The position numbers and the translations under genes were made by a program. A DNA stretch of 64,000 bases from Candidatus Bathyarchaeota archaeon (lineage in GTDB: Archaea; Thermoproteota; Bathyarchaeia; Bathyarchaeales; Bathycorpusculaceae): positions 95,082-159,081 of the forward strand of contig PLYI01000026.1 in NCBI GenBank assembly GCA_003151735.1, given 5' to 3'. Under the pieces are notes generated by a model, which searched no databases, was not told the origin of the DNA, and was given only the letters and a program-made list of their open reading frames with translations. Every line of letters begins with the position of its first letter. Position 1 is the stretch's first letter. Below are positions 21,992-53,567 of this stretch, piece after piece.

Positions 21992-22038
21992 AGAAGAAGA
22001 AAAACGGCTATTGCTACGGAAAAGTGTATTTCTTCTTT
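21992..22038. repeat. Dispersed hairpin, GAAGAAGAA stem
   Basis: AGAAGAAGAAA at 21992-22002 faces TTTCTTCTTT at 22029-22038, a member of the dispersed hairpin family. It lies between the amylase start and the VapB start, so here it is not a simple 3' terminator of a neighbour. Confidence 0.5.
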
Positions 22039-22116
22039 CAGGCAAAGCCATTATTAATTTACCTTTTATGAATAGCTTTTTAGGTAGGAAAGTAAGATCA
22101 TGATGTGTGTTTATCT

Positions 22117-22410
22117 ATGGCACAGAACGAAAAAACAGACGTAACCGTTGTCAGCGAAAAAGGACAAGTCGTAATCCCGCTAAAAATACGGAAGAAATTA
22201 GGCATAGGACCAAAAACCAAACTGGTCATCTACGGTTACCAAGACGCAGTAATAATGAAAAAACTTGAAGTCCCCGACGTAACCAAAGAATTGGAAGAAA
22301 TTTACGAACGCATTAACAAGAAAATTGAGAAAGAAGGCGAATTGTCCAATGAAGAGATTAATGAAGTAATCCATGATTACAGAGCGAAGAAGACTTCTTG
22401 TGAAGTTTGA
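22117..22410 (+). CDS. vapB: VapB-type antitoxin, AbrB/MazE fold
   Basis: ATG 22117 is preferred over an in-frame GTG at 22105. VTVVSEKGQVVIPLKIRKKL is the swapped-hairpin AbrB DNA-binding motif. The C-terminal half (KELEEIYERINKKIEKEGEL) is the flexible helix that blocks the toxin. The toxin gene begins four bases after the stop. The pair is presumably autoregulated at its own promoter. Confidence 0.85.
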   Translation: MAQNEKTDVTVVSEKGQVVIPLKIRKKLGIGPKTKLVIYGYQDAVIMKKLEVPDVTKELEEIYERINKKIEKEGELSNEEINEVIHDYRAKKTSCEV

Positions 22411-22413
22411 TAA

Positions 22414-22839
22414 ATGCGTGTAGTTTTTGACACAAACGTTCTAATCTCAGCCCTAATAACGAACGGAAAACCAAAAGAGCTCTTCCAACAAGCGATCAAA
22501 GGGCACCTTCAACTTGTAACTTCAAAGAGCATCCTCCAAGAGTTTAGCCTAATTTCCAAGGACCACCGAATAAGGAAATACGCCAGCGAAGATGACGTCA
22601 TTGCTTTCTTAAGAATCATAGACAAAGTTGCAAAGATAACCAAAATTAAATCACAATTCAAAGTTGTAAGAGAAGACTCAGATGATGATATGGTGGTAAG
22701 AACAGCCTTTGACGGCAAAGCTGACTACATTGTATCAGGTGATAAACACATGCTTTCTCTGTCCACATACAGAGGAATAAGAATCGTAAATGTTGATGAA
22801 ATGTTGAGGCTTCTAAAAAAAGAAAAAGCTACAAAATAG
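22414..22839 (+). CDS. vapC: PIN-domain toxin, VapC-like
   Basis: MRVVFDTNVLISALI carries the first catalytic Asp. A Glu in ILQEFSLI, Asp in EDSDDDMVV and Asp in IVSGDKHML complete the acidic set of a PIN ribonuclease. At 141 residues it fits the COG1569-like archaeal PIN toxins. It directly follows the AbrB antitoxin, four bases apart. It would cleave RNA when the antitoxin is degraded. Confidence 0.85.
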   Translation: MRVVFDTNVLISALITNGKPKELFQQAIKGHLQLVTSKSILQEFSLISKDHRIRKYASEDDVIAFLRIIDKVAKITKIKSQFKVVREDSDDDMVVRTAFDGKADYIVSGDKHMLSLSTYRGIRIVNVDEMLRLLKKEKATK

Positions 22840-22904
22840 GATCACCTGAGATTAAACTGAAAAATAAGAAGACAATGGCTTGCACTCATATGTATTTTTT
22901 TTTA

Positions 22905-22951
22905 AGAGAAGAAGAACACTGTTTCCTACGGGAATTGTTTTTTTCTTCTTT
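22905..22951. repeat. Dispersed hairpin, GAAGAAGAA stem
   Basis: AGAGAAGAAGAA at 22905-22916 faces TTTTCTTCTTT at 22941-22951, followed by CAAC. It lies just beyond the vapC stop, where it may end transcription. Confidence 0.5.
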
Positions 22952-23180
22952 CAACTTGGCTAATTTCCTAATGCGAGTGCTCAGTTAACCAATGAAGAAG
23001 CGAGCTATTATCAGCTTTGCAGTTAAAAGAAAAGCAGTCAGGAAGAATTTTCAACTGATAATGGAAGGTATTTTAGTATCTATTTTTTTTGTGGTTTTTG
23101 CCTAAAGCTTTAATTCGGAGAAAGATGTTCAGTTTTTTGTCGAAGTTAGTCGACTTACCGATAATTTTGGTTGGTAGCAT

Positions 23181-25772
23181 ATGAGTTTGGATAATTTTAC
23201 GGTTAAATCGCAGGAAGCTATTCAGAAGGCTGTAGAAATTGCTTCTGCAAATCGCAATCAGGCTGTTGAGCCGCTTCATTTGCTGAAGGGGATCTTGCTA
23301 GTTGATGAGAATGTGGTTCCTTTCTTGCTTAGAAAACTTGGTGTCAATTCTGATGCTTTCTCTGGTTTGCTTGATAAGGAAATTGATTCTTTACCTAAGG
23401 TTACCGGGGGAGAACAGTATCTTTCCTCAAATTCTAATAAGGCACTTCATAAGGCTCAAGAGTTGGCTACTGCTGCCAAGGATGAGTTTGTTTCTATAGA
23501 GCAGTTGTTGTTGGCTATATTGTCGTTGGATGGTTCCGCTTCGCGTTTGCTCAAAAGCAGTGGTGTTAATGAAAAAGACCTCAAATCCGCAATTAGCCAG
23601 TTGCGTAAGGGATCCTCTGTTAAATCGCCGACTGCAGAAGAAACCTACAATGCCCTCAACAAGTACGCCATCAACCTAAACAGTATGGCTCAGGCTGGAA
23701 AATTAGATCCAGTTATTGGCCGCGACAGTGAAATTCGGCGGGTTCTTCAGATTCTATCTAGACGGACAAAGAACAATCCTATCTTGATCGGCGAGCCGGG
23801 TGTAGGTAAAACAGCTATCGTTGAGGGTCTTGCGCAGCGTATAATTAACGGTGATGTGCCTGAGAATTTAAAGTCAAAGCAGGTTTTTTCTCTTGATATA
23901 GGTGCCTTGATTGCAGGTGCCAAGTACAAGGGAGAGTTTGAGGAGCGTCTTAAGAGTGTAATTAAGGAAGTCGTGGGAGCAGAGGGTAATATCTTGCTTT
24001 TCATCGATGAGATTCATACGCTTGTTGGGGCAGGCGGCGGCGAGGGCGCCATGGATGCGGCCAATATTCTTAAGCCTGCATTGGCGCGAGGCGAGTTGCG
24101 TGCTATTGGCGCTACTACTTTGAAGGAATATCAGAAGTATTTTGAGAAAGACAAGGCTTTAGAGAGACGTTTTCAGCCTGTCATGGTTAATGAGCCTAAT
24201 GTTTTGGATACTATCTCTATCCTTAGAGGCCTAAAAGAGCGTTACGAAGTGTATCATCATGTTCGAATTAGAGATGATGCAATAATTGCAGCTGCTGAGT
24301 TATCTCAACGGTATATTACTGAGCGTTTTCTGCCCGATAAGGCAATTGATTTGATTGATGAAGCGGCTTCTAAGTTGGAGCTTGAAATCAATTCTGAGCC
24401 TCAGGAACTTGAGGATGTTGATCGGAAGATTCGGCAGTTAGAGATTGAACGTGAAGCCATTAAACAAGAAAAGAACGAAGTTAAGCTCAAGTCGCTAAAT
24501 CTGGAAATCGCAAATTTGATTGAGCAACGCAATAGTTTAAGGGCTAAGTGGCATGCTGAGAAAGAAATTGTTGATCAGATTCAAGCTAAGAAAAATGAGA
24601 TTGAACAGTTAAGGTTTGAAGAGGAAAATGCTAACCGTCAGGGCGATCTTGGAAAGATTGCAGCGATTCGATATGGCAAAATTCCCGATGCAACTAAAGC
24701 AATTGAGGCTTTGAAGAAGAAATTAACAGAGTTGCAGAAGGATTCAGCGCTGGTAAATGAAGAGGTAGGTGCGGAAGAGATTGCTGAAGTTGTTTCTAGC
24801 TGGACTGGAATTCCTGTTAATCGCATGTTGCAGACTGAGAAGCAAAAATTGTTAAACATAGAAACTGAGCTTCACATGAGAGTTGTTGGGCAAGATGAAG
24901 CAATCCAAGCAGTTTCTGATGCGTTGCGGCGGAGTCGTGCTGGCCTGCAAGATCCTAAGCGCCCAATTGGGTCTTTTATTTTCTTGGGTACAACTGGGGT
25001 TGGAAAAACTGAATTAGTCAAGGCCTTAGCAGAGTTTCTCTTCAACAACGAGAACAATATGGTTCGGATTGATATGTCGGAGTATCAGGAGCGACATACT
25101 GTTTCCAGGCTTGTGGGTGCTCCGCCGGGTTATGTTGGCTATGAAGAAAGCGGACAGTTAACTGAAGCAGTGCGAAGAAAGCCTTACTCTGTTGTTTTGC
25201 TTGATGAAATCGAGAAGGCGCATCCGGATGTTTTCAATATTTTACTGCAGGTCCTTGATGATGGTCGATTGACTGATAATAAAGGTCGAACAGTCGATTT
25301 CAAAAACACCATCATAATAATGACTTCCAACATAGGCTCTCACCTTATTCAAGAAAACTTAGCGAAAATTACTTCTGAAAACCGCGAGCACATCCTAAAT
25401 CAAACCAAAGAGCAAGTCTTTGAGTTACTCAAGAAAAGCATCAAACCAGAATTCCTCAACCGCATAGATGAAATAATAATGTTCCAACCCCTCACCCAAG
25501 AGGAAATTCGGAAAATAGTGGAGCTGCAACTGCAAAAAGTTGAACAAATGCTGGAAAAAAACAACATAAAACTCTCAGCAACCAAAAAAGCCATAGACTA
25601 CATCGCCAAAGTTGGATTTGACCCACAATTCGGGGCAAGACCAATAAAACGTGTCATCCAAAAAGAAATCTTGAATGAACTTTCAAAGATGCTGCTATCT
25701 GAAAAAGTCAACAAAGACACAACGATTATCGTGGATGAAAAAAACGGCCAACTGATATTTAAAAATAAATAA
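23181..25772 (+). CDS. clpB: ClpB disaggregase
   Basis: An 863-residue Hsp100 protein. The N-domain has two Clp_N repeats ([20 protein letters not shown]). The first AAA+ module has Walker A GEPGVGKT and Walker [11 protein letters not shown] long coiled-coil middle domain follows ([20 protein letters not shown]), which separates ClpB from ClpA/ClpC. The second AAA+ module has GTTGVGKT and [11 protein letters not shown]. It rescues aggregated proteins with DnaK-type chaperones. ClpB is uncommon in archaea and usually reflects transfer from bacteria. It stands alone, with no dnaK nearby. The third quarter onward shifts toward C-ending codons, an odd internal change of codon use. Confidence 0.95.
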
Positions 25773-26142
25773 GTTAAGAGGTTGCCCTCTTTGACTTTCA
25801 ACTGAAATCTTTTTCACAAGCAACATACTGGATTTGATAGAGAAATCCCTATTTATTGAGTTGTGAGCTAGCGCCTTTACTGGTGGACTTGTTCTGTAAT
25901 AAAACAGAAACTTGTGTATATTGTTCTGCAATAGAACAATTCTTGGAAAACTCTGATTTTTGAGGACGTTTCAGAAACCCGGAAGGTCGTCGCGTCCACG
26001 ATAAAATTAGGCCCCTTCTCGATCGGCTCATCGAAGAATGAACCGTCAACTTGCTAAATTATCCCGGGGTATACACGAAAACTCAGAATTTGGCTAAAGA
26101 GCTGGGGATGGGAGTTGAACGCAAATAGAGCAGCTCTGCAGG
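25773..26142. other. Gap with degenerate coding remnant
   Basis: Around 25970-26129 a plus-strand frame reads RFRNPEGRRVHDKIRPLLDR, then a TGA, then VYTKTQNLAKELGMGVERK, with stops between. It resembles a decayed DNA-binding gene and ends in the first 22-bp direct repeat. No intact gene is visible. Confidence 0.3.
26099..26120. repeat. 22-bp direct repeat, left copy
   Basis: GAGCTGGGGATGGGAGTTGAAC is repeated exactly at 26882-26903. Read on the minus strand it resembles the T-arm and acceptor end of a tRNA. The two copies bracket a VapBC pair, like attachment sites of a small cassette. Confidence 0.6.
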
Positions 26143-26583
26143 CTACCCTTTGTGTTCTTGGCTAGCGATCAATGTATTGCTTGATAGAGTTTCTACGCCC
26201 AAGGGTTCTGCAGCTTTAGCAAGTTTGTTGTCATCTGTTACTAGGATTTTACTGGTTTTCTTTGCCTCTACAAGATATGCGGAGTCATAAAACGTTAGAT
26301 TGCACTTATGAGCTGTTTGCAGTATTTCGCTTCCTTGTTCGCAATAGACCTCAACTACCTGCATACGCACAAGCATCGCATACATTAGGCTCAACGATTT
26401 CTCGGCTTCCTCAATACTTATCCTCTTAAGCAAATGAGCCTCTCTCCACAAAGCATTGCCAAGCTCATAATACGCTAAACTAATCGTTGTCCCTTCCATC
26501 AGCTTGTCCATGGCTTTTTCAGGGCATTCCCTGATAAGCCTGTATATGGCGTTAGCATCAAACAATAACCGCTGCTCTGTCAT
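26143..26583 (-). CDS. vapC: PIN-domain toxin, VapC-like (second pair)
   Basis: A 146-residue PIN protein with FDANAIYRLI, YELGNALW, TFYDSAYLVE and ILVTDDNKLA supplying the acidic residues. Its start overlaps the upstream antitoxin stop as ATGA, the usual antitoxin-first order. It probably acts as a ribonuclease. The pair sits inside 22-bp direct repeats, suggesting movement as a unit. Confidence 0.85.
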   Translation of the reverse strand: MTEQRLLFDANAIYRLIRECPEKAMDKLMEGTTISLAYYELGNALWREAHLLKRISIEEAEKSLSLMYAMLVRMQVVEVYCEQGSEILQTAHKCNLTFYDSAYLVEAKKTSKILVTDDNKLAKAAEPLGVETLSSNTLIASQEHKG

Positions 26584-26804: not shown

Positions 26805-26881
26805 ACCCATAGGTATTACCGAAATAGTATAACAACTGCGTATGATAAGAAGATTTCTGCAATTTCTAGTTAAAGCAATTG

Positions 26882-26903
26882 GAGCTGGGGATGGGAGTTG
26901 AAC
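26882..26903. repeat. 22-bp direct repeat, right copy
   Basis: Exact copy of 26099-26120. Here the minus strand continues GTGGGTTCAACTCCCATCC, a plausible tRNA T-stem-loop, but no matching 5' half of a tRNA follows within 90 bases. Confidence 0.6.
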
Positions 26904-27062: not shown

Positions 27063-27077
27063 AATGGGTTACAGTCT

Positions 27078-27119
27078 AAAGAACAACACAAACAAAATTT
27101 TTCAACTGTTGTTATTCTA
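27078..27119. repeat. Dispersed hairpin, GAACAACA stem
   Basis: AAAGAACAACA and TGTTGTTATTCT flank a loop with AATTTTTCAA. It is followed by AGAAGGAAATTACA, exactly as after the copy at 31636. So this hairpin and the tail of the neighbouring zinc-ribbon gene were duplicated together. Confidence 0.55.
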
Positions 27120-27265: not shown

Positions 27266-29301
27266 TCATGGTTGTAGGTCTTCTGTCTGGCAGAGGACAT
27301 AAGCGGAGCGAGATGGCAGATAGACGCTGAGCATATTTTGACTTTTTCCTTCAGTGTTGTCTACGATAGTGAAGTGAGCCTGCTGGGAGTCCAAGCGCCA
27401 GTGTCCTCCGTACTTTTGTGCATCACTGTCTAGTATCATCCGGTATTTTCCAGGAGGAGCTTCAAATCGATAATCCGTAAAAGATTGATGGGGATTAAAA
27501 TTGAAGGCAAAAATCAAATCAGCCCTCTTGAATATAATTATCTTTTGTGTGGAATCCTCATGCAGAAGTTGAAGGACAGGTGTTTCAAGTAAGTGGTGTG
27601 TCTTGGCCAGTGCAATCATGTCTTGGTCGAAAAGGGCCAGTAAATGATGTTTTAGGTGGGTGTCGTCTGCGAGATGCCATTGTCGATTTGCATGTTTGAA
27701 TGACCAGTTGTTTCCTTCGCGAGGGAAATCTATCCAATCTGGGTGGCCGAATTCGTTGCCCATGAAATCTAGATAACCGTTGCTTGCCGTACTCAGTGTT
27801 ATCAGGCGAATCATCTTATGCAATGCTATTCCCCGGGCGACCTTAGCGGTGTCATCATCGATCCCCATGTGATGGTACATGTCTTCGCCGATTAGTCGGA
27901 AAATAAGTGTTTGGTCTCCCACTAATGCCTGGTCGTGAGATTCGGCGTAACTAATGGTTTTCTCATCTGTTCTGCGGTTGGTAAGTTCGAACCAAAGATG
28001 CCCGATGGGCCAGTCTTCATCTTTGTAATCTTTTATCAGGCGGATCCAGTAATCAGGCACTCCCATTGCAAAGCGATAGTCAAAACCGAAACCGCCCTCT
28101 AATTGGGGAACAGCCAAGCCCGGCATGCCGCTGACATCTTCCGCTATGGTAATGGCGTCGGGTTGGATATCATGAATCATTCGATTAGCTAGAGCAAGAT
28201 AGGTAAGGGCATCTTCATCCACACTGTCATCGTAGTAACCGTTGTAGGAAGTGAATACTCTCTTAAGACCGTGCTCTAGGTAAATCATGCTGGTGACGCC
28301 GTCGAATCGAAAGCCGTCAAAGAGGAATTCGTCTAGCCAATATCGGCAATTTGAAAGCAAAAAATGCAAAACCTGAGGTTTGCTGTAATCAAAGACGCGT
28401 GAATCCCATGCCTTGTGTTTTCCCCGTGGGCCTTCATGAAAATACTGAAATAGTGTCCCGTCGAAGCGGCTCAATCCCTCCACCTCGTTGGACACGGAGT
28501 GGGAATGGATCAGATCCATGAAAACGGTTAGCCCTTGGGCGTGAGCAGTGTCAATTAGGAGTTTCAAGTCCTCGGTGTTCCGTACCGTGATGAAGAGGCG
28601 AAAAAGCTTGATACTTGATATCCAAATGAACCATAGTATGGATGTTCTTGAATGGCCATCAACTGTAACGTATTGTAGCCCGCGTTGACAATTCGCGGAA
28701 GCACTTTGAGAGTGAATTCTCGGAAGGACCCGATTTTTTCTTCTTCCTGTGCCATACCGATATGTGCTTCATAAATAATAGGGGGCTCTTTAGGTCGTTT
28801 GAAATTGGGTTCTTTCCAACAATATGGCTGTGTAGGTGACCATACTTGGGCGTTGAAAATTAATGTTTTTGGATCTTGCACGACCCGTCGAGCGTATGCC
28901 GGGATACGATCGCCTTCGCCTTCGGCCCAATGAATACGGAGTCGATACAGATCGCCATGTTTCAGTTTGTTGACGGACAAGTGAATTTCCCAGACACCAT
29001 AGTCGTCGAGCCTTTTCAGCTCAAATTCTTTGCTCTCTTGCCATTTACTCATGTCGCCTATCAGGTAGATCTCTGTTGCGTTTGGAGCCCATTCCCGAAA
29101 TACCCATTCTCCTCTTTGAAAATGTAGACCGAAGTATTCGTGGCCGCAGGCAAACTCTGCTAGGCTCTTTTTACCCCGTGTAAGGCGATGTTCTGTTTCT
29201 TCGATATTTTCCAATCGGTGTCGAATCTTATCAGAAAATGGCGTGAGATAAGAGTCGCTTTTCAGCAGGCGTATTAATCGGTTTTCAGGACTGCTCATCA
29301 A
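27266..29301 (-). pseudogene. glgB: Glycogen branching enzyme, eukaryote-type, one-base frameshift
   Basis: Two frames overlap at 28564-28567. The upstream part (ATG 29301) has the CBM48 domain (EYFGLHFQRGEWVFREWAP) and ends SSRYGTPRT. The downstream part resumes with KLLIDTAHAQGLTVFMDLIH. Adding one base near 28573 restores TPEDLKLL and a 678-residue enzyme. Catalytic text matches the eukaryotic GBE1 branch: MDLIHSHSV, GFRFDGVTSM, AEDVSGMPG, ESHDQAL and FMGNEFGHPDWIDFPREGN. It would form alpha-1,6 branches in glycogen. Everything else is well conserved, so the shift is either very recent or a sequence error. Confidence 0.85.
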
Positions 29302-30568: not shown

Positions 30569-30949
30569 GGGTCTGTTCAGTTTTAAGTTTGGGCTTTTGA
30601 CAAAATCCGACAACCAAAATTCAAAGAAGCTAAGATTTCAGCTGAGGATGCACTTAATTTGGCTGGTTGGCTTAATTTTAGAGATAAAGGTCAAGTGGGA
30701 CATCTGGATCAAGGTTTGATAGAGTTGTCCCAAAAAGGCTATTGATTCTGCATCTATGGGATCTATAAAAAGCCTAACTTATTCTAAATAACTGCCCATA
30801 TATGGTTCCAAAAGTTAGCTCGAATGAACTCAAATGGCCTAAACAGACCAAGGTTAATTGAAACAAGTTTTTGGTGATGAACCGTCTGCACCGCAAACTT
30901 GGAAATAATTAACTCCTATAAGAAGAAAAATGGAATTCGGGAAGAAGGG
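30569..30949. other. Gap with a start-less gene tail
   Basis: At 30604-30744 a plus-strand frame reads KIRQPKFKEAKISAEDALNL, then AGWLNFRDKGQVGHLDQGL, to a TGA. It has no start and looks like the 3' end of a lost gene. The remainder shows nothing. Confidence 0.3.
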
Positions 30950-31347
30950 TTATAGTGCCCGCATTCGGTTGTTTTTTGAGTTATGTTCAACCTCAGCTAG
31001 TTCCAAAGCCTCCATTATAGGCGGTATATAGTTTGCAAATCTCCCTCGCAAACCTTTCTTGAGTCCATACCATCCGCCCCCTGGGTTTTTTGGTGACCTC
31101 CCCCAAGCTTCAACAGTTCCCTCTTCAGCGGGTTTCTGCTCGTCAGCGCTACCCAGCGGCATCCATTCCCCTTTTGCCTTTAGCATCTTATGCAAATCAT
31201 CCAAGGCACGAAGTTGATACTTAAGCTCCGTTTTACCCACCCAAACAACTATTGCTGGCGGATCTGCTTTTTCATCTTTGTATGCTTTATATTCAGAAGT
31301 TCCTGGTGGAGTTTTGAGGATCCAAGGATCATCCTTTGTTCCTTTCT
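30941..31347. repeat. 407-bp duplication, copy 2 (with intact gene)
   Basis: Matches 18468-18874. Here the minus-strand gene has its own start and continues to 31369, so this copy is the likely source. Confidence 0.75.
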
Positions 31348-31369
31348 GTTTAGCTGTCAAAAAATTCAC
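30950..31369 (-). CDS. Conserved hypothetical protein, 139 aa (DUF6855-like)
   Basis: Starts MNFLTAKQKGTKDDPWILKT. It contains GKTELKYQLRALDDLHKMLK, then WMPLGSADEQKPAEEG, WGRSPKNPGGGWYGLKKGLR and a helical end (IPPIMEALELAEVEH). I recall this arrangement from a widespread uncharacterised family, probably DUF6855; the family name is from memory. It is soluble, with an invariant-looking GS-DEQK segment that could be functional. It is partly duplicated 12.5 kb upstream. Confidence 0.65.
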   Translation of the reverse strand: MNFLTAKQKGTKDDPWILKTPPGTSEYKAYKDEKADPPAIVVWVGKTELKYQLRALDDLHKMLKAKGEWMPLGSADEQKPAEEGTVEAWGRSPKNPGGGWYGLKKGLRGRFANYIPPIMEALELAEVEHNSKNNRMRAL

Positions 31370-31685
31370 CTAATAACAGGAGTCGTTAAAGGTAATTTCA
31401 ACTTTTCGGCTTCTTGAAGCTTAAGGTCAGAGAAAGAAAAAAAATTGCTCCCAACAGAATTATAATTCTTTTTTCTTCTAACAAGAAACCTATCTTTTTC
31501 AATAGAAGAACAAAAACAATCAAATTTTTTGAAAAAGCCGTGTTCTTGTTCTATCGATTGAACTAGTATTAGTTGACTGGTCGAAGAAGTGCCACTGCAG
31601 CAACCTTCTTCTTTTTCTTATGGCAGCTACAGTTGAAAGAACAACAAAACAAAATTTTTCAACTGCGTTGTTCTACAGAAGGAAA
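31370..31685. repeat. Cluster of dispersed hairpins
   Basis: Three family members are visible: ATAGAAGAACAA...TTCTTGTTCTAT at 31503-31555; GAAGAAG at 31583-31589 with CTTCTTC at 31605-31611; and AGAACAAC at 31638-31645 with GTTGTTCT at 31667-31674 around AATTTTTCAAC. There is no gene in this stretch. Confidence 0.5.
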
Positions 31686-31985
31686 TTACACGTGAATAAA
31701 ATAGCAAAGATCATTTTCTTCTTTTTCACTTTCGAGTTTTTCTATTTCTGTTCCCGAAAGTTTTTGCAGCAAAGAAAAACCTGTTAAATGAATTGCAGTT
31801 GCACACTTGTTGCATTTAATTATCACTTCATCCAGACTTTGTTTTTCGACCTTTATATCCAAAATGGAATATCCTTCTCCGGCACAGTCATCGGGAGATA
31901 TTTTATTTCCACATTCAGGGCAAAGTAATTCTCCATTTCCATCTATTTCAGTTAAGTCCAATACGTGCGATTGTATTTGTTTCAT
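31686..31985 (-). CDS. Zinc-ribbon hypothetical protein, 99 aa
   Basis: Starts MKQIQSHVLDLTEIDGNGEL. CPECGNK and IKCNKCATAIHLTG supply four cysteines for one zinc ribbon, followed by a charged helix (EIEKLESEKEEND). A partial paralogue starts at 162 and a tail remnant lies at 27122. A member of the hairpin family abuts its 3' end. Function unknown. Confidence 0.65.
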   Translation of the reverse strand: MKQIQSHVLDLTEIDGNGELLCPECGNKISPDDCAGEGYSILDIKVEKQSLDEVIIKCNKCATAIHLTGFSLLQKLSGTEIEKLESEKEENDLCYFIHV

Positions 31986-36217: not shown

Positions 36218-36261
36218 AAAGAAGAAGAAAAAGGGAAAATTTTTCAACTTTCTTCTTCTTT
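36218..36261. repeat. Dispersed hairpin, 13-bp GAAGAAG stem
   Basis: AAAGAAGAAGAAA at 36218-36230 pairs perfectly with TTTCTTCTTCTTT at 36249-36261. The loop contains AATTTTTCAA. It lies between the nuclease start and the HepT remnant tail. Confidence 0.6.
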
Positions 36262-36800: not shown

Positions 36801-36863
36801 GCACTCCAGCTCAGCTTCCGGCTAAATTCTTACAAGAAAGCTTGTCCTCCTTCTTTCAATGTA

Positions 36864-36909
36864 GAAGAAAAAAAAATCAGTTTTTTCCAAGCAACACAAT
36901 TTTTTCTTC
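36864..36909. repeat. Dispersed hairpin, GAAGAAAAAA stem
   Basis: GAAGAAAAAA at 36864-36873 pairs perfectly with TTTTTTCTTC at 36900-36909, with TTTTTTCCAA in the loop. A related sequence occurs at 53515-53567. Confidence 0.5.
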
Positions 36910-36933
36910 TTCCAGCATAACGCCTGCACTAAC

Positions 36934-36976
36934 AAAAGAACAACAATAAACTGGAATTTTGGCGTGTTGTTGTTTT
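36934..36976. repeat. Dispersed hairpin, GAACAACA stem
   Basis: AAAAGAACAACA at 36934-36945 faces TGTTGTTGTTTT at 36965-36976, 11 of 12 positions paired. It lies before the 3' end of the methyltransferase gene. Confidence 0.5.
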
Positions 36977-38251: not shown

Positions 38252-38288
38252 AGGGAACAACAAACCAATTTGCAACTGTTGTTCAACC
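38252..38288. repeat. Dispersed hairpin, GAACAACA stem
   Basis: GAACAACA at 38255-38262 pairs with TGTTGTTC at 38277-38284 around AACCAATTTGCAAC. It sits directly upstream of the membrane-protein start and beyond the zinc-finger stop. Confidence 0.5.
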
Positions 38289-38566: not shown

Positions 38567-38755
38567 TAAAGTGGCGATCGTTAGGTTCGGATGGTGCCTT
38601 CTCGTCTGCTCTTGGTTGTGCTGGGGGGTTTGGTTTTTCTAAGAAACACAAACCGCTGTTTTGTGCATGGTTGGGGTTTTCGGTGTTTGTTATTTCGTTT
38701 GGGTTGCTGGTCCATTGAGTGGTTTTTGGGTGAAGCCTTGGTTTGTGCTGCAAGA

Positions 38756-39022
38756 ATAAGAGATGGACACGTAGCTGAGACAGGAAAATCTGAAGTCTTT
38801 GATTATGATCAAGAAGCTGAAGACACAAATATTTTGAAAGACGCTATTCGTTTTCTCAAGGAGCAGCCTTCCATTCTGCCTAATTTGTCCAAGGATGGGG
38901 AGAACGTTGAAGAATGGCCTTCAGAGGCTTTGCGATATCTTGGAGATAATTATAATCCGCTAGATGGGCAAGTTCCATTTTGTGCAGCAGTTAACCGAGG
39001 TACCGGAGAAAGGATCTTTTAA
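38756..39022 (+). pseudogene. 3' remnant of unknown gene family (copy 2)
   Basis: The recognisable part reads EDTNILKDAIRFLKEQPSIL, then LPNLSKDGENVEEWPSEALR and FCAAVNRGTGERIF, and stops at 39022. It corresponds to the remnant at 18196-18467. A longer frame reaches back to 38591 but that part shows no relation to the family. A hairpin of the dispersed family follows nine bases later. Confidence 0.45.
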
Positions 39023-39032
39023 TTAATTTTGG

Positions 39033-39083
39033 GTAGAAGAAGAACGGGTGAATTCCCACGGAAACATAGGTCCTTCTTCTTTC
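39033..39083. repeat. Dispersed hairpin, AGAAGAAG stem
   Basis: AGAAGAAGAAC at 39035-39045 faces CCTTCTTCTTT at 39072-39082; an inner GGGTGAATTCCC adds pairing. It follows the remnant gene end. Confidence 0.5.
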
Positions 39084-39110: not shown

Positions 39111-39152
39111 AGAAGAAGACATTAACCCTGGCACACAGCGCTGTCTTCTTCT
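39111..39152. repeat. Dispersed hairpin, perfect 11-bp stem
   Basis: AGAAGAAGACA at 39111-39121 pairs perfectly with TGTCTTCTTCT at 39142-39152, followed by TTCAAC. It is the second hairpin in tandem with the one at 39033. Confidence 0.55.
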
Positions 39153-39677: not shown

Positions 39678-40784
39678 ATGCTCGAGCGACTATCCTTTCA
39701 TACTCTCAACAAAGAAATCATAGAGCCAGGAATTTGCGCGGCATGCTATGGCTGCGTCAGTTTTTGCACCGCCAATAAACTCAATGTTTTATCTATCGAA
39801 AAGGGTATGCCAGTTTATTGCGATGAGAAGAACTGTCTTGAAGACGGAATATGCTACCTTATCTGCCCCAGAACCCCCGATCTGGAGAAAGCTCTAAAAA
39901 CGAAATATCAGTATGAAGAGCCAATAGGGTCCTACGTAGCACTAAGAAGTCTCCGTTCCACAAACAAAGAAATCACAGATGTCTGCTGCGACGGCGGATT
40001 AGTAACCGGATTACTCGAGTTCATGTTAGATACGCAAAGAATCGATGGAGCTGTACTCTCCAAAAAGGAAAGTCTTTGGAACAATGAGCCTACAATCGCC
40101 ACCGATTTCAAAGACCTCCTCAAGTGTGCCGGTTCAAGTCTAGCTCAATCGCAAAGCATTATGGATATAGAGGACTTTACCACATACACCTCTGGTTTTC
40201 ACGCTCTCAAAAAACCCAACCTGCTAGATTATACCAAGCTTGCAGTCGTAGGTACACCCTGCCAGATAACAACTATTAGGAAAATGCAACTGCTTCACAT
40301 TATTCCCAGTCACATAGTAAATTTCACGATAGGTTTGTTCTGTTTCGAAAACTTTCTAATGAATAACGATGGAGTCAAGTTTCTTACAAAAAAGCTAGGC
40401 ACTGACTTCGACCAGATCGAAAAAATAAACCTCAAAGAAGATTTTATCGTAAGACTAAAGGATGGAAAAGTCCACCACATTGACCTAGAAGATCTTGGCC
40501 CAATAATTCGACCCACATGTTTAGCATGTATAGATTTCTCCAACTATAGCGCCGACATCTCAGTTGGAGGAATCGGTTCTCCAGATGGTTACACGACCAC
40601 TTTGGTACGAAATCAGGCAACTCAACGACTGATAAACCTTGCAATCAGCCAAGGATACTTGGAAGAAACCACGCCAAGAGATGCCTTAGAAAAAATAAAG
40701 AAGATGGCCGAGAGAAAGAAAAACCGTGGGCAAAAAACGCTTCTCGAACGAAAAACGAAGAACACCAATCACAGAGCACACTAA
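39678..40784 (+). CDS. F420-reducing hydrogenase/dehydrogenase beta subunit-like
   Basis: A 368-residue protein with an N-terminal ferredoxin-like cysteine set (CAACYGCVSFC, then CYLICPRTPDL), followed by the FrhB core: CCDGGLVTGLLEFML, VVGTPCQITTIRKMQ, NFTIGLFCFENF and ADISVGGIGSPDGYTT. The family transfers electrons between F420 and iron-sulfur or flavin partners (FrhB, FpoF, FqoF and related). The C-terminal 30 residues are basic. It is isolated here, with no hydrogenase or Fpo genes beside it, so the partner enzyme is unknown. Confidence 0.85.
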   Translation: MLERLSFHTLNKEIIEPGICAACYGCVSFCTANKLNVLSIEKGMPVYCDEKNCLEDGICYLICPRTPDLEKALKTKYQYEEPIGSYVALRSLRSTNKEITDVCCDGGLVTGLLEFMLDTQRIDGAVLSKKESLWNNEPTIATDFKDLLKCAGSSLAQSQSIMDIEDFTTYTSGFHALKKPNLLDYTKLAVVGTPCQITTIRKMQLLHIIPSHIVNFTIGLFCFENFLMNNDGVKFLTKKLGTDFDQIEKINLKEDFIVRLKDGKVHHIDLEDLGPIIRPTCLACIDFSNYSADISVGGIGSPDGYTTTLVRNQATQRLINLAISQGYLEETTPRDALEKIKKMAERKKNRGQKTLLERKTKNTNHRAH

Positions 40785-40933: not shown

Positions 40934-40970
40934 AGAAGAAGAAGTGCAATTTTTTCAATCTTCTTCTTCT
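40934..40970. repeat. Dispersed hairpin, perfect 11-bp GAAGAAG stem
   Basis: AGAAGAAGAAG at 40934-40944 pairs with CTTCTTCTTCT at 40960-40970 around TGCAATTTTTTCAAT. Its strict pairing makes it the best model of the family. Confidence 0.6.
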
Positions 40971-48085: not shown

Positions 48086-48441
48086 AGTTTTAAAATATGC
48101 TGACTACGAACTTAAAGCCTTTTCACAAAACAGCCAAACTCAGCATCTGAGTTTTAAATTTTGACTGGTAGAAGAAGAACCGAAAATTTTTCAATCTTCT
48201 TCTAGTTTTGACACCTAGTCTTTTGGCGCAAATCTTCTCTTGTTTCTGGCAAAGTCAAGATAGTAGTTGTTCACCCTAAAAATTTCACCCGTTCAACTTC
48301 TTCTCTAAAGAAAGGAAAGACTTAGTAAGCGGATTTTTCGCTTTTTTATCATTCCGCTCCAAGTTTTCCAACTCTAAAGAGAGAATACCGTTTTGCTTCC
48401 TCAACCACATTAGTGCAAACATACAATCAACTTTTCAGTAA
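48086..48441. repeat. Gap with hairpin element (48167-48205)
   Basis: AGAAGAAGA at 48170-48178 pairs with TCTTCTTCT at 48195-48203 around a GAAAATTTTTCAA loop. About 130 bases from 48165 are recognisably similar to 50707-50840, including TTTTGACxC and GTTCACCCTAAAA, so a longer element than the hairpin alone is repeated. No gene is seen. Confidence 0.5.
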
Positions 48442-49995: not shown

Positions 49996-50033
49996 GGCTA
50001 TCGAATTAACAATCAAATAGATGTTGGGTGATT

Positions 50034-50049
50034 GGATAAAATTTAATCC
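50034..50049 (-). promoter_or_regulatory. AT palindrome GGATAAAATTTAATCC upstream of fwdB
   Basis: Lies 39-54 bases before the preferred fwdB start, where the TATA box or an operator would be. It is the clearest case where the recurrent palindrome could act as a promoter element. Confidence 0.4.
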
Positions 50050-50121
50050 AAAACTATCCAAAAAATGAAACCTATGTTGATTAAATCTTCGATGTTGTTT
50101 GGAGCACACTTGATTTGCCAA

Positions 50122-50376
50122 AGGTCACATATGGCTGACAAACCTATCTTTCTTCGCTGAGGGTTTAAACTAATTTCGGGAAACCCGTAAGTTTGCAGGC
50201 TAAATTAAAATTTATTCCAACCAACTTTTTCTTCTTTCTACCAGACTGAATCATAAGGAATCCAAGCTTTTGGGGGAAAGGTTTGTTCCCGAGTTCCCAA
50301 GTTATATGATTTTTAAGGATGTATCCAGTCTCTAAAAGAAATAAAAAGAGCAATTTCAAAAATTATTAATTTTAGG
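50122..50376. other. Gap upstream of fwdB, nothing clear
   Basis: AT-rich, with one more degenerate palindrome (TAAATTAAAATTTATTCC near 50200). No supported gene is seen. Confidence 0.3.
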
Positions 50377-50495
50377 TTATGCCCACCTCGTTTTGTTTAG
50401 TTTTTCTGAGAGTTTTAGTCCGCATGGACCGCAAAGGAAGCCCCATGAGTAATCGAATTTTGTAATTTGCCAGTCTGATCTGTCTTTAAGAAAAA
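50377..50495 (-). pseudogene. Tail of zinc-ribbon gene (related to 38296)
   Basis: A minus-strand frame reads KDRSDWQITKFDYSWGFLCG, then PCGLKLSEKLNKTRWA, to a TAA. It aligns with RPDWLVTMFDDSWGFLCGPC at 38296-38566 but lacks the first cysteine pair and start. Confidence 0.4.
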
Positions 50496-50681
50496 TTGAA
50501 AGATTCAATTAAACGTGAAGTACTCCTAACCTTACGAGAAACATTTGATAAACAGGTCTTAACTATTCCCAATAGGTATACCCAACTTGTTGAGGAGCTT
50601 TTTGATTTTAGTTATGGCGGTCCCGCGAATGGATATGTTTTGGCCTTAGCCCTTGCTGTTCAAAAAGCCGTTAAGAGCTGA
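50496..50681 (+). CDS. Hypothetical protein, 61 aa
   Basis: TTG 50496 opens MKDSIKREVLLTLRETFDKQ, then LTIPNRYTQLVEELFDFSYG and a hydrophobic helix (GYVLALALAVQKAVK). The composition looks coding and the tail is helical. The start is weak, so this could be the end of a longer lost gene. Not recognised. Confidence 0.4.
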   Translation: MKDSIKREVLLTLRETFDKQVLTIPNRYTQLVEELFDFSYGGPANGYVLALALAVQKAVKS

Positions 50682-50708
50682 ATAGAGAAAAAGACGTAGA
50701 TAGTTATC

Positions 50709-50750
50709 TGGTAGAAAAAAAGAAAATTCTTCAATCTCTTCTTCTTTTGA
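50709..50750. repeat. Dispersed hairpin, degenerate GAAAAAA/TCTTCTT stem
   Basis: GGTAGAAAAAAAGAAAATTCTTCAATCTCTTCTTCTTTT resembles the element at 48167, with mismatches in the 5' arm. It is followed by the same TTTTGACGCA tail as at 36261. Confidence 0.4.
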
Positions 50751-50919
50751 CGCATAACTTTTTGGCACATCTCTTCCTTCTTGCAAATCAAGTTGGATGT
50801 TGTTGTTCACCCTAAAATTTCGCCATGAACAACTTCTACTATTTGGACGAACGAGTTTTTCCCTATTGACGAAGTTTTTTCTTTTCTTTCAACTCAGCAG
50901 GGTTATGGCAAACCCCAAT

Positions 50920-50956
50920 AGAACAACAACAGTTGAAAAACGCGTGTTGTTGTTCT
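50920..50956 (-). repeat. Dispersed hairpin, perfect 12-bp GAACAACAACA stem
   Basis: AGAACAACAACA at 50920-50931 pairs perfectly with TGTTGTTGTTCT at 50945-50956. The loop GTTGAAAAACGCG carries the TTTTTCAA motif in reverse orientation. Confidence 0.6.
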
Positions 50957-50981
50957 TTCAGCACTGTCATTGAGCTATGGA

Positions 50982-51018
50982 AGTAGTAGATGCTGCAAAT
51001 TTCAACTAGACTACTACT
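50982..51018. repeat. Dispersed hairpin, AGTAGTAG stem
   Basis: AGTAGTAG at 50982-50989 pairs with CTACTACT at 51011-51018, with AAATTTCAA in the loop. It is a third stem sequence in the same architecture. Confidence 0.5.
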
Positions 51019-51084
51019 CTTGTATGAAGAACTTTTTTTACCGATTACTTTTGCAATGTTTTTCAAAAATGCATAGTTAACTTA

Positions 51085-51186
51085 GTAGAAGGATAAGCCC
51101 GATTTTTTCAACCTTTTTCTTCTTTTAAGATAAAGTTTAGTTGAAAGGCCAACAACAAAACATTTTTCCAACTGTTGTAGTACTTT
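51085..51186. repeat. Two further hairpins in tandem
   Basis: GTAGAAGG...GATTTTTTCAACC...TTCTTCTTTT at 51085-51126 is followed by AAAGGCCAACAAC...CATTTTTCCAACTGTTGTAG at 51144-51180. They have different stems and the same loop type, and extend the cluster starting at 50709. Confidence 0.45.
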
Positions 51187-51452
51187 TAGTTTAAAAATCT
51201 CGTAGCAACGAAGTTGATGAGCCTCAAGAACAAAAAGTACTAACTGGATGGGGGAATTTATTGTGAGTTTGTTTGCCGGGGTTTCGAGTTTCTAAAATTA
51301 GTTAGGGCAGGCTGAGTCTAAGCCTTAACTGCGTTCACGGTCCATAAAAGCAATGTCTTAATCGCTGAATGATCTTTCACCGTTTTGACCATGCAGCTCA
51401 TTGCTTTTTTGCAACGCTATTATGTCCAGCCCGTTAAAGCCAAGTCTTAGTC
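51187..51452. other. Gap, nothing recognised
   Basis: About 270 bases of mixed composition between the hairpin cluster and the 51453 inverted repeat. No supported frame or RNA is visible. Confidence 0.3.
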
Positions 51453-51486
51453 ACGTATCAATTTTCAGCTGTTTCAATTGATACGT
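51453..51486. terminator. Inverted repeat ACGTATCAATT/AATTGATACGT
   Basis: A perfect 11-base stem with a 12-base loop (51453-51463 and 51476-51486). It lies about 160 bases beyond the DUF72 gene end on the minus strand, so it is a possible terminator or a binding site. Confidence 0.4.
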
Positions 51487-51562
51487 TCCATGCTTCAACG
51501 CATTACTTAAAGCGTGCTCCTCAGCCTGCAAATATGACATTATGGATGCGGACTATTAAATA

Positions 51563-51582
51563 TTGTGACATTTATGTCACAA
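51563..51582. promoter_or_regulatory. CRP/FNR-like palindrome
   Basis: TTGTGACAT-TT-ATGTCACAA is a perfect inverted repeat. It is followed at once by TTGTAC...GTACAA (51585-51612). The TGTGA/TCACA halves resemble CRP-family sites but with an 8-base spacer. No gene start clearly depends on it except the mini-ORF at 51574. Confidence 0.4.
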
Positions 51583-51651
51583 ATTGTACTATGTATGTGC
51601 CATTTGGTACAATCGATAAGATGTCCTATGTGCGGTAGAGAGTTTAACTAA
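51574..51651 (+). CDS. Possible zinc-binding mini-ORF, 25 aa
   Basis: ATG 51574 reads MSQIVLCMCHLVQSIRCPMC and ends GREFN. The CxC and CPMC pairs look like a zinc ribbon end. It overlaps the DUF72 3' end by eight bases on the opposite strand and could equally be a gene fragment. Confidence 0.25.
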   Translation: MSQIVLCMCHLVQSIRCPMCGREFN

Positions 51652-52471
51652 AGAATGCGCCTAACTGGGATTGTTTAACGGTATTCTTGGATTTTGCTTT
51701 TTTCTGTTCTTCAGTTGTCAATCCTAACTTCTCAATCAGTTGAAGACAATTCTCTGGTGCATAACCGTGATAGTGATTGTTAAAGTAGCCATAGATTTTT
51801 TTGACTTTGGTTGAAGTTTGTTGAACTATTGGAATCCAAGTATCTATCTCTTTTTCGCTATACCTGTAGTCAAACCAGATATTTTCTCCTTTGCCATGCC
51901 ACCTGAAGTAAGCGAAATCAGTGGTCAAGTGGATTTCTGGTGGAAGAAGCGGTTCGTCAACAATAGTGTAAGCTATTCCATATTTCTTCAAGAGCTTAAA
52001 AGTTAGAGTTTCAGGAAGCAACCATGTTAAATTCCTGAATTCTACTGCATACCTAAAAGTTGGGTCAAGCATTTTGAAGAATTCTTCAAGGTTCTCTGGA
52101 TTGTATGTGTACTTTGGTGGGAGTTGTATCAGTAGACATGCGAGTTTTCCACCTAGCTGTAGAGGTCGCATTAAGTCCAAGAACTCTTCCAAATGGGACT
52201 TAACTTCTTTTTTTAGGCCAAGCATATTGTCATGCGTTATCGTTTTAGGTAGTTTAGCACTGAAGAGAAAATCGCTGGGTGAATACTTTAGCCAACCTAT
52301 GACCGTGCCTTTGGTGGGATTGCGATAGAAGGTTGAGTCTATTTCAGCAGTTTTGAAGACTTTTGAGTACGCTCTAAGTTTACTTTGTCCACTTCTCTTC
52401 TCGTAAAAGTTACCTTCCCATTCTTTGTAACTCCATCCGCAAGTTCCTAAGATTATGTTGTCTTTACTCAA
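51644..52471 (-). CDS. DUF72 (YecE-like) protein, 275 aa
   Basis: GTCGWSYKEWEGNFY opens a TIM-barrel of the DUF72 family, followed by AEIDSTFYRNPTKGTVIGWL, FLFSAKLPKTITHD, LLIQLPPKYTYNPEN, VEFRNLTWL and YFRWHGKG. These are the conserved strand ends. The biochemical role is not established in the family. It overlaps its paralogue upstream by eight bases, so the two are co-transcribed. The C-terminal tail is lysine-rich. Confidence 0.85.
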   Translation of the reverse strand: MSKDNIILGTCGWSYKEWEGNFYEKRSGQSKLRAYSKVFKTAEIDSTFYRNPTKGTVIGWLKYSPSDFLFSAKLPKTITHDNMLGLKKEVKSHLEEFLDLMRPLQLGGKLACLLIQLPPKYTYNPENLEEFFKMLDPTFRYAVEFRNLTWLLPETLTFKLLKKYGIAYTIVDEPLLPPEIHLTTDFAYFRWHGKGENIWFDYRYSEKEIDTWIPIVQQTSTKVKKIYGYFNNHYHGYAPENCLQLIEKLGLTTEEQKKAKSKNTVKQSQLGAFFS

Positions 52472-53369
52472 TTACTATTTTCAGCTCCTTTATGACTTCT
52501 TTTATGTTGAGGTAGTTTTTGTCTGGAATGCTATTTAGAAACTCGGAGAGGTGTGCTGTCTGGTTTTGTTTAACATCTATGACTTTCCAGCCTTGTTTTT
52601 TGATTAGTTGTGACTTGGAAGATGGGAATGTTGCGTCTTGAGCTAAAACTTCTTTTGCTGAATCTGCACCAATACCTGAAGTTACAGGCAAGAAATGTCC
52701 AGTCTTCAAATGTTGTTGAAACCTCAAAGCGTCATTATTCATCCGTACTCCATGATAAGATAGTATTACTTTCTTTGAATTAGTTTCTTCAGCTCGTTTT
52801 TGTATTTCCAATTGTTCAACATTGGTGAATTGGTAGATATTGTGTTGTCCCTTGCCGAATAATCTGGAATATGTTTCATTGAGACTAAAGCTTGGTTTTT
52901 GCTTTGACAAATCAACACAATGTATTATGTTGAAGTCTTGCATTAAGTTAGTTACCTGTTGGGTTATTTGTGCTCTGTATTCCCAAACAAGCTGGACGCC
53001 TTTCGAGTTAATTGTTGAAAGAAAATCTCTTGTATCATTAGTGATTGTGTAACTAGTTGGTGTCTCCAACACTACATAAGGGGTTTGAAGAAGATTAGCG
53101 TAGTTTTTGGTTTTGTAGAATACTTCATAGGCTTCATCTATTGGTTTTAAGCCTATTCTATGAGTTAGGTCTTGGTTGCATCTTACAGAAAAAGTGAAGT
53201 CTTTTGGAACTGTTCTTCTCCATCGCTCCACAGTTTGTACAGATGGGTACTCATAAAATGTGTAGTTAATTTCAACAAAGTTGAATATTTCACTGTAAAC
53301 TTTCAAAGAGGGTTTAGGTGGAACATTGAAGTAACTCCATCCACCTGTTCCAACAAGATAATCAGTCAA
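52464..53369 (-). CDS. DUF72 paralogue, 301 aa
   Basis: GTGGWSYFNVPPKPSL, VEINYTFYEYPSVQTVERWR, DFTFSVRCNQDLTHR, VVLETPTSYTITNDTR and LVWEYRA follow the DUF72 pattern but diverge strongly from the downstream copy. It lacks the RWHG strand (YHGVRMNND instead) and has a longer C-terminus. Transcribed first of the pair from ATG 53369. Perhaps the two form a heteromer; this is inference from overlap. Confidence 0.8.
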   Translation of the reverse strand: MTDYLVGTGGWSYFNVPPKPSLKVYSEIFNFVEINYTFYEYPSVQTVERWRRTVPKDFTFSVRCNQDLTHRIGLKPIDEAYEVFYKTKNYANLLQTPYVVLETPTSYTITNDTRDFLSTINSKGVQLVWEYRAQITQQVTNLMQDFNIIHCVDLSKQKPSFSLNETYSRLFGKGQHNIYQFTNVEQLEIQKRAEETNSKKVILSYHGVRMNNDALRFQQHLKTGHFLPVTSGIGADSAKEVLAQDATFPSSKSQLIKKQGWKVIDVKQNQTAHLSEFLNSIPDKNYLNIKEVIKELKIVIE

Positions 53370-53467
53370 TAATTATCCTCAAAAGGATATTCAGGGTCTG
53401 ATTATAATAACATTTTAAAGATTATGCGATGTCAATCTATAGTTGTTTCTTAATGTCTAACATTTGA

Positions 53468-53567
53468 TGCCTTTTTTCGCAGCAATTAACCGGGGTACAG
53501 GTGAGAGGATTTTTAGAGAAGAAAGAAAAAATCGATTTTCCAAGAACCACAGTTTTTTCATTTCTTT
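53468..53567 (+). pseudogene. Short gene-tail remnant plus hairpin (copy 3)
   Basis: FFAAINRGTGERIFREE at 53468-53520 matches the end of the remnants at 18196 and 38756. It runs into GAGAAGAAAGAAAAAATCG...TTTTTTCATTTCTTT, a degenerate hairpin like that at 36864. Confidence 0.4.

What the first reader, a model, noticed from the sequence alone, without database searches (positions are those of the whole stretch)
21992..53567. Dispersed hairpin family with interchangeable stems
At least fifteen intergenic hairpins share arm length, spacing and often a TTTTTCAA loop, but the arms swap between GAAGAAGAA/TTCTTCTTC, GAACAACAA/TTGTTGTTC and AGTAGTAG/CTACTACT. Both arms change together, which is covariation evidence for a functional fold. 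Examples with perfect stems are 36218-36261, 39111-39152, 40934-40970 and 50920-50956.
Basis: seen in the sequence. Interest (0 to 1): 0.75.

Follow-up and report, generated by a model that had tools for sequence, protein, structure and literature searches.

The report
Stray viral DNA-packaging hairpins in archaea
Short palindromic DNA hairpins between genes of this archaeon belong to the same family as a hairpin built into the DNA-packaging (small terminase) gene of tailed viruses of its relatives, where it is probably the mark that tells the virus which DNA to package.

Summary
The hairpins are real: 14 strict members in the window, all outside called genes, plus several decayed ones. Arms match by class (AAG, AAC, AGT). 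They are clustered, not genome-wide: 7 of 11 exact copies in 3.5 Mb lie in this window. Flanking-gene orientation argues against terminators.

The family's home is elsewhere. In tailed-virus contigs and proviruses of Bathyarchaeia the hairpin sits in frame in the gene upstream of the large terminase, between a helix-turn-helix and a helical domain: a small terminase (TerS) by position and architecture. Of 77 such genes found by their C-terminal domain, 56 carry a perfect stem of at least 9 bp there, against 6 of 461 control windows. Stems swap at homologous codons (QQQ..CCC, EEE..SSS, VVV..TTT). Arm class tracks the helix-turn-helix. A covariance model built only from 15 terS hairpins finds 8 window places at E<0.05, best 7.6e-7.

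Best reading: a palindromic DNA site bound by TerS, probably the packaging start; pac inside terS is known for P22 and haloviruses. The window holds free-standing copies, relics or pseudo-pac sites. Binding, packaging and any host role are untested.

The parts
21992..22037 (.). AAG-arm hairpin, loop CGGCTATTGCTACGGAAAAG
   Evidence: terS model R2 E=0.015
22907..22950 (.). AAG-arm hairpin
   Evidence: R2 E=0.022
27082..27113 (.). AAC-arm hairpin with TTTTTCAA loop; 84% identical over 119 nt to 31605-31721
   Evidence: not reported by R2 at E up to 10
31434..31479 (.). A-rich-arm hairpin (AAGAAAAAA..TTTTTTCTT), 82% identical to one on contig C81
   Evidence: R2 E=1.1 only
31583..31611 (.). AAG-arm hairpin
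   Evidence: not reported by R2 at E up to 10
31638..31671 (.). AAC-arm hairpin, TTTTTCAA loop, imperfect
   Evidence: R2 E=0.71 only
36219..36260 (.). AAG-arm hairpin, TTTTTCAA loop; on the minus strand the bases before it read ADMRQKIVLKEEE (by eye), resembling the end of the terS HTH
   Evidence: R2 E=6e-5
36863..36910 (.). A-rich-arm hairpin (AGAAGAAAAAA..TTTTTTCTTCT)
   Evidence: R2 E=0.027
36938..36974 (.). AAC-arm hairpin, 27 nt after the previous one (chain)
   Evidence: R2 E=0.25 only
38255..38284 (.). AAC-arm hairpin
   Evidence: not reported by R2 at E up to 10
39035..39082 (.). AAG-arm hairpin 12 nt after the stop of ORF 38591-39022; a stretch of C89, 74% identical over 322 nt, has a hairpin at the same place
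   Evidence: R2 E=0.63 only
39111..39152 (.). AAG-AC-arm hairpin (AGAAGAAGACA..TGTCTTCTTCT), the arm class of one terS lineage
   Evidence: R2 E=0.0063
40934..40970 (.). AAG-arm hairpin, TTTTTCAA loop; best match to the terS model
   Evidence: R2 E=7.6e-7, 8.4e-6 over the whole genome
48169..48204 (.). AAG-arm hairpin A, TTTTTCAA loop
   Evidence: R2 E=0.25 only
48206..48289 (-). anchor linker; antisense resembles a decayed 'MRQKIRxLRL' codon run (by eye); leads into hairpin B (to 48304)
   Evidence: 3 copies found in the own genome
50713..50840 (.). second copy of the hairpin A - anchor - hairpin B module; hairpin A decayed
50920..50956 (.). AAC-arm hairpin (12 bp)
   Evidence: R2 E=0.001
50982..51018 (.). 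AGT-arm hairpin
   Evidence: R2 E=2.4 only
51087..51126 (.). imperfect AAG-arm hairpin missed by the strict scan
   Evidence: R2 E=3.8e-5
51141..51183 (.). imperfect AAC-arm hairpin
   Evidence: seen in the sequence only

Best explanation
The hairpins are free-standing copies of a palindromic DNA element whose home is inside the small-terminase (terS) gene of tailed viruses and proviruses of Bathyarchaeia. There it encodes the flexible linker between the DNA-binding helix-turn-helix and the helical domain, but it is kept as an inverted repeat while the encoded residues change. The most likely role in the virus is a double-stranded DNA site bound by TerS itself, the packaging initiation (pac-like) site. 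The triplet rhythm of the arms fits an origin in a reading frame. The window copies lie outside that gene, between host genes and in chains: relics of terS-like modules that can at most act as pseudo-pac sites at which a virus would start packaging host DNA. Shown: family membership, in-frame position in the virus gene, arm covariation, arm-to-HTH association, free-standing state in the window. Inferred: descent of the window copies from terS, TerS binding, packaging start, relic or pseudo-pac status.
For: (1) A model built only from 15 terS hairpins (11 viral, 4 from relatives' genomes) finds 8 window places at E<0.05 (best 7.6e-7), all at hairpins read before, and nothing at E<1 in 135 kb of the same contig outside the window; over the whole own genome it lists 11 places at E up to 1, one of them the genome's own terS (a lower bound: 150 of 1397 first-look candidates were scored). 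(2) 77 terS loci found by C-terminal domain: best perfect inverted repeat in the linker at least 9 bp in 56 (34 of 54 after removing C-termini 85% or more identical) against 6 of 461 control windows (4 of 324 for the 54). (3) A stretch similar to the large terminase follows in 47 of 47 viral and 23 of 30 genome loci (Pfam Terminase_6N confirmed for the two I tested). (4) Arm classes swap at homologous codons with encoded residues QQQ/CCC, EEE/SSS or VVV/TTT; 59 two-sided against 2 one-sided cells. (5) Arm distance correlates with HTH distance beyond C-terminal distance: partial r 0.243, p 2e-4, 43 genes. (6) In G018 a terS-borne hairpin and five free-standing copies share loops (0, 0, 4, 0, 0 of 500 shuffles as good). 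(7) pac lies inside terS in P22 (PMC9611059, passages) and in archaeal PhiH1, PhiCh1 and ChaoS9 (PMC6471424, PMC6210493, passages); host pseudo-pac sites drive P22 transduction (PMC11226127, abstract).
Against: No binding or packaging data exist. Loop-only similarity of window hairpins to terS loops is weak (3 of 16 at p<0.05, combined p 5e-4); 7 of the 14 strict window hairpins score above E 0.2 or are not reported by the terS model. 10 of 77 linkers have no stem of 7 bp: three cut loci misread by my script, the own genome's terS (6 bp), and six short linkers that look hairpin-less, so the site is not essential in every relative. The seven seeds of the C-terminal search were first found through hairpins. 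Two of four pair-counting measures are not far from shuffles. The fold search gave no significant PDB match and no terminase; TerS identity rests on position and architecture. No HTH or C-terminal domain was found near the window hairpins. G107, the relative with most AAG matches, carries a terS with a different arm class. Whether the hairpin region is richer in recent transfers than a hairpin-free control is unclear: 15 against 3 matches to other species of at least 200 nt and 80% identity, but only 5 against 3 distinct segments (the list is cut off).
Confidence: 0.5

Rival explanations
1. A selfish palindromic element of the REP, MITE or Rickettsia-palindromic-element kind that spreads between genes and also landed in frame in a tolerant linker of terS; the hairpin has no packaging role.
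For: Dispersed copies with shared loops and unrelated flanks; chains of hairpins with linkers; hairpin modules also sit in multi-HTH ORFs; a few terS homologs lack it.
Against: Same linker position in 56 of 77 terS loci with arms tracking the HTH is hard for chance insertion; the Y1 transposase that moves REPs was not found in the own genome or in the two relatives with most matches.
Confidence: 0.25
2. The terS hairpin is an operator or mRNA element by which TerS controls its own expression; host copies are relics.
For: Position directly after the HTH codons; arm-to-HTH association.
Against: It lies inside the coding region, not at the promoter or start; almost no one-sided (G-U) changes, so an RNA fold is less likely.
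Confidence: 0.12
3. Transcription terminators or mRNA 3' hairpins of the host.
For: Intergenic in 21 of 21 own-genome cases read; convergent gaps somewhat over background, 26% against 18%; one hairpin 12 nt after a stop codon, shared with a paralogous stretch.
Against: Divergent gaps are occupied nearly as often as background, 23% against 27% (crude gene calls); locally clustered; no Rfam match in the window.
Confidence: 0.05
4. Arm matching is maintained without function by template-switch correction of quasi-palindromes, so covariation says nothing about selection.
For: Mechanism recalled from general knowledge; some free copies are decayed.
Against: Does not explain why the palindrome recurs at one codon position of one gene family or tracks its HTH.
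Confidence: 0.08

Closest known systems
pac sites inside terS (P22; haloviruses PhiH1, PhiCh1, ChaoS9)
   Same: A DNA packaging signal lying within the small-terminase coding sequence (passages of PMC9611059, PMC6471424, PMC6210493).
   Different: P22 pac is described as a 22-bp asymmetric sequence and the halovirus pac as a GC-rich motif near the terS stop; here it is an inverted repeat in the inter-domain linker with swappable arm classes. Cleavage or packaging not shown.
Host pseudo-pac sites (P22 in Salmonella, PMC11226127, abstract)
   Same: Chromosomal copies resembling a virus packaging signal.
   Different: Here copies carry full palindromes, stand in chains of several classes and are clustered; no transduction data.
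REP / BIME elements (recalled; listing and passages)
   Same: Short intergenic palindromes in chains with linkers.
   Different: Few exact copies in this genome, triplet arms, no Y1 transposase found in the own genome, and a coding home in terS.
Rickettsia palindromic elements (recalled; search listing only)
   Same: Palindromes present in frame within genes and between genes.
   Different: Here tied to one position of one virus gene family with arm class tracking the HTH.

Membership tests
Small terminase (TerS), for the gene that carries the hairpin | Gene adjacent to the large terminase | tested here: met
   47 of 47 viral and 23 of 30 genome loci by tblastn with two TerL proteins; Pfam match for the two tested
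Small terminase (TerS), for the gene that carries the hairpin | N-terminal HTH, linker, helical oligomerisation core | tested here: met
   One AlphaFold model: helices 9-21, 26-32, 39-48, low-confidence 56-63, helices 78-92 and 99-150; mean pLDDT 86.6, pTM 0.47; oligomer not tested
Small terminase (TerS), for the gene that carries the hairpin | Recognised homology to known TerS by family model or fold | tested here: not met
   No TerS family for the two viral proteins scanned in Pfam and PHROGs; no PDB fold match at E<=0.001; NCBIfam not tried. Called TerS-like by synteny
pac / packaging initiation site | Located in or beside terS | tested here: met
pac / packaging initiation site | Bound by the cognate TerS | not testable with these tools
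   indirect only: arm-to-HTH association
pac / packaging initiation site | Packaging starts there | tested here: inconclusive
   Many virus contig ends lie at stop codons, which looks like trimming
REP element | Associated Y1/RAYT transposase | tested here: not met
   PF01797 not found in the own genome; found in 5 of 13 carrying relatives, not in the two richest, G018 and G107
REP element | High copy number across the genome between genes | tested here: not met
   11 exact places, clustered; 11 places listed by model (lower bound)
Intrinsic terminator | Downstream of genes, depleted in divergent gaps | tested here: not met
   16 of 70 in divergent gaps, background 71 of 264

The most novel reading that the evidence does not exclude
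The chains of free-standing hairpins of several classes are maintained arrays of packaging signals matching different virus lineages: either decoys that divert the terminases of infecting viruses, or loading sites through which host or satellite DNA is packaged and moved between cells, with the helix-turn-helix plus its own hairpin acting as a swappable recognition cassette.
Probability: 0.15. Interest if true: 0.9.

Novelty: new variant of a known kind. Interest (0 to 1): 0.75.

Why it matters
It offers a candidate packaging signal for viruses of Bathyarchaeia that can be tested from sequence data: virion reads should begin near the hairpin. It is an unusual case in which a DNA palindrome is kept inside a reading frame while the encoded residues flip (Gln/Cys, Glu/Ser, Val/Thr), with the arms following the DNA-binding domain, so a helix-to-half-site code might be read out. 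Free-standing copies in host genomes could mark past infection, transduction start points or decoys. The listings of my paper searches (titles and starts of abstracts) showed no paper that describes this; two papers on Bathyarchaeia viruses, searched for passages, mention no such site in the places shown (PMC10848311; PMC11705971).

Tried and rejected
Terminator reading: gene orientation. REP/RAYT reading: Y1 transposase not found where copies are most. Known RNA family: none in the window. Integron-like cassettes and a 'hot region for gene transfer': the hairpin region is mosaic, and a hairpin-free control has fewer high-identity matches but nearly as many distinct segments (15 against 3 rows, 5 against 3 segments), so I draw nothing from it. 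Virus contig ends as packaging cuts: many fall on stop codons, so probably trimming (one search printed nothing because of a file-name slip). AAG hairpins in viral contigs: 70 loci, most with unrelated loops and flanks; I read the frames around five, of which three are terS. Orthologs of ORF 39678-40784 in two Bathyarchaeota have no hairpins beside them. A loop-similarity test was weak. Fold search gave nothing significant.

Selection to bear in mind: most relative loci were fetched because of AAG hits, so AAG counts there are biased; AAC and AGT counts are less so (AAC/AGT two-by-two Fisher 2.5e-5, AAG/AAC in the window 0.035). The AAG pattern read backwards also occurs in 18 of 120 genomes, up to 4 times, so single hits in relatives may be chance. 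The 43 genes and the 15 were kept for a stem of at least 7 bp, the 15 also for one register; keep all 77 and 54. In one search own arms pair by construction, so only the between-class comparison is informative. HTH and C-terminal distances are ungapped identities.
Full report
WHAT IS THERE. The window is G000:C123:95082-159081 of a 3.5-Mb, 124-contig genome, 97.8% complete. A protein of the window has two close relatives among named genomes, both Bathyarchaeota (72% and 68% identity). Between 21992 and 51018 there are 14 hairpins with arms of at least seven bases in triplet rhythm (AAG, AAC, AGT), plus about six looser ones. The order purine arm then pyrimidine arm is kept: AGAAGAA followed by its complement in 18 position pairs against 0.6 expected, the opposite order in 2. 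All 14 strict window hairpins, and 21 of 21 in the own-genome stretches read, lie outside called genes; the coding fraction of the window is 0.71 (simple gene caller; 0.29^14 is 3e-8). Over all loci, relatives included, 25 of 106 lie in called ORFs against 74.2 expected.

WHERE THEY ARE. In the whole genome exact AAG hairpins occur at 8 places, 5 in this window; exact AAC hairpins at 3, 2 in this window. The rest sit on contigs C81, C89 and C39. Of 120 genomes, own included, 33 have the exact AAG pattern, some often (64 forward matches in G107, 27 in G018, overlapping matches counted apart); the pattern read backwards occurs in 18 of the 120, at most 4 times and not at all in the own genome. 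In relatives the hairpins often stand in chains; one stretch of G022 has five in about 300 nt, four AAG and one AAC (L028, read by eye).

COVARIATION WITHOUT CIRCULARITY. Matching arms are what one searches for, so I looked for anchors outside the hairpin. A conserved linker of about 80 nt (window 48206-48289 and 50745-50824, plus C81, G024, G013) follows a hairpin that is AAG-type at 48169, on C81 and in G013, but AGT/GTC-type at two places in G024, and decayed at 50713. A sequence-only model of this linker gives 8 strong copies in 4 of 61 genomes, own included, with weaker hits in 4 more (strict filters, so a lower bound). At G018's copies the hairpin is imperfect. In reverse complement the linker resembles a codon run MRQKIRxLRL, the end of a helix-turn-helix (by eye). 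In G005 such modules lie inside open frames.

THE HOME OF THE HAIRPIN. A scan of viral contigs for the 12-nt AAC arms gave 13 loci, 13 of 13 with the hairpin in frame in one gene. The protein reads MTKGKPW...TEEAIRQKLIKFGLL, then a hairpin-encoded linker KEQQQPKNSNCCCST, then a helical domain. In the two loci tested the next gene is the large terminase (Terminase_6N, E 1.3e-13 and 1.5e-13). To reduce bias I aligned only the C-terminal domain (A5; its seven seeds had been found through hairpins) and searched again: 47 viral loci, and matches in 30 of 120 genomes, own included (C115); 30 genome loci were read. In these 77 loci the best perfect inverted repeat before the C-terminal domain is at least 9 bp in 56 (42 of 47 viral, 14 of 30 genome) and at least 7 bp in 67; control windows of the same length in the same loci reach 9 bp in 6 of 461 and 7 bp in 61 of 461. 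Removing C-termini 85% or more identical leaves 34 of 54 at 9 bp or more and 44 at 7 or more (controls 4 and 51 of 324). Ten of 77 have less than 7 bp: three cut loci misread by my script (one of them shows a 12-bp stem), the own genome's terS (6 bp), and six short linkers without a hairpin. A large-terminase-like stretch follows in 47 of 47 viral and 23 of 30 genome loci. The virus records carry no host names; I call the viruses bathyarchaeal because very similar genes lie in Bathyarchaeia relatives (G025, G016).

STEMS SWAP AT THE SAME CODONS. Orthologous linkers use AGAACAACAACA, AGAAGAAGAAG, AGAAGAAGACAA, AAGAAAAAA, AGTTGTTGTTG, AGAAGTAGTAG and others. The encoded residues flip accordingly (QQQ..CCC, EEE..SSS, VVV..TTT), so the protein is unlikely to be what is kept. 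On 15 genes in one register, 59 cells change on both sides and 2 on one side; covariation is 0.629 against 0.179 (sd 0.031) in shuffles and at most 0.425 when slid by three, the triplet period. Two measures are less clear: 13 of 15 pairs with two-sided change against 10.7 (22 of 500 shuffles), and 22 further pair types against 20.1 (136 of 500). Near absence of one-sided changes suggests selection on duplex DNA. Arm distance follows HTH distance (r 0.25, p 2e-4), also with C-terminal distance held fixed (0.243, p 2e-4); with HTH fixed the C-terminal correlation is 0.09, p 0.03 (43 genes chosen for a stem). Close linkage of HTH and hairpin on the DNA could give part of this.

LINK TO THE WINDOW. 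A covariance model made only from those 15 terS hairpins (11 viral, 4 from relatives' genomes, two of these four without a large terminase found) was run over 324 kb of own-genome DNA. The window has 8 places at E<0.05 (40924, 51077, 36210, 50910, 39101, 21985, 22900, 36856), C81 three, and the 135 kb of the same contig outside the window none at E<1. Seven of the eight are among the 14 strict hairpins. The other seven strict ones score weaker (36938 and 48169 at 0.25, 39035 at 0.63, 50982 at 2.4) or are not reported at E up to 10 (27082, 31583, 38255). Over the whole genome the model lists 11 distinct places at E up to 1: 5 in the window, 4 on C81, the terS on C115, and C80:3152, which I did not read. 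That list is a lower bound, as only 150 of 1397 first-look candidates were scored and the window place at 50910 is missing from it. In G018 the hairpin inside a terS copy with one stop codon resembles five free-standing hairpins including the loop. Loop similarity between window and terS hairpins is weak by itself. Neither the HTH nor the C-terminal domain was found near the window hairpins: they are free-standing.

HOW IT PROBABLY WORKS. TerS proteins bind DNA with an HTH and bring it to the large terminase; in P22 the pac site lies in the terS gene (PMC9611059, passages), and in the archaeal viruses PhiH1, PhiCh1 and ChaoS9 pac is within terS (PMC6210493, PMC6471424, passages). An inverted repeat directly after the HTH codons, tracking the HTH, fits a site bound by TerS, most simply the packaging start. 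This is inference. The AlphaFold model of one protein has the expected architecture with the hairpin-coded linker of low confidence, but no solved terminase was matched. For host copies, pseudo-pac sites are known in P22-Salmonella transduction (PMC11226127, abstract). Whether these copies are relics, pseudo-pac sites or decoys is open; decay of some copies favours relics.

VERDICT. Observation confirmed; interpretation partly right (real covariation, probably at the level of DNA, and clustered rather than genome-wide). The finding is unusual because it leads from host intergenic hairpins to an in-frame palindrome in a virus packaging gene.

Noticed in passing
L126 (G005:C47), 796-1910, minus strand: Several helix-turn-helix units joined by hairpin-coded linkers, next to and partly fused with a fragment resembling the ABC-ATPase gene that follows the large terminase in the viruses; may be HTH-plus-hairpin modules multiplying inside a provirus remnant.
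   Followed up: partly
window 27266-29301: Glucan branching enzyme split over two ORFs (28564-29301 and 27266-28567), apparently a broken gene.
   Followed up: no
window 18448-18874 and 30920-31347: A stretch of about 427 nt is repeated at 100% identity (G000:C123:126001-126428); the second copy covers most of ORF 30950-31369 (DUF6855).
   Followed up: no
G107 loci L045-L059: AGAAGAAGG hairpins (64 forward pattern matches, 15 loci read) embedded in longer repeats with short CAACAT/AACGTCACGC units; its terS has a different arm class.
   Followed up: partly
G000:C80:3152-3213: Further match to the terS hairpin model (E=0.004), not inspected.
   Followed up: no
window 38744-39064 and L107 (C89): Two stretches 74% identical both carry a hairpin at the 3' end of the gene, so the hairpin probably predates the duplication.
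   Followed up: partly
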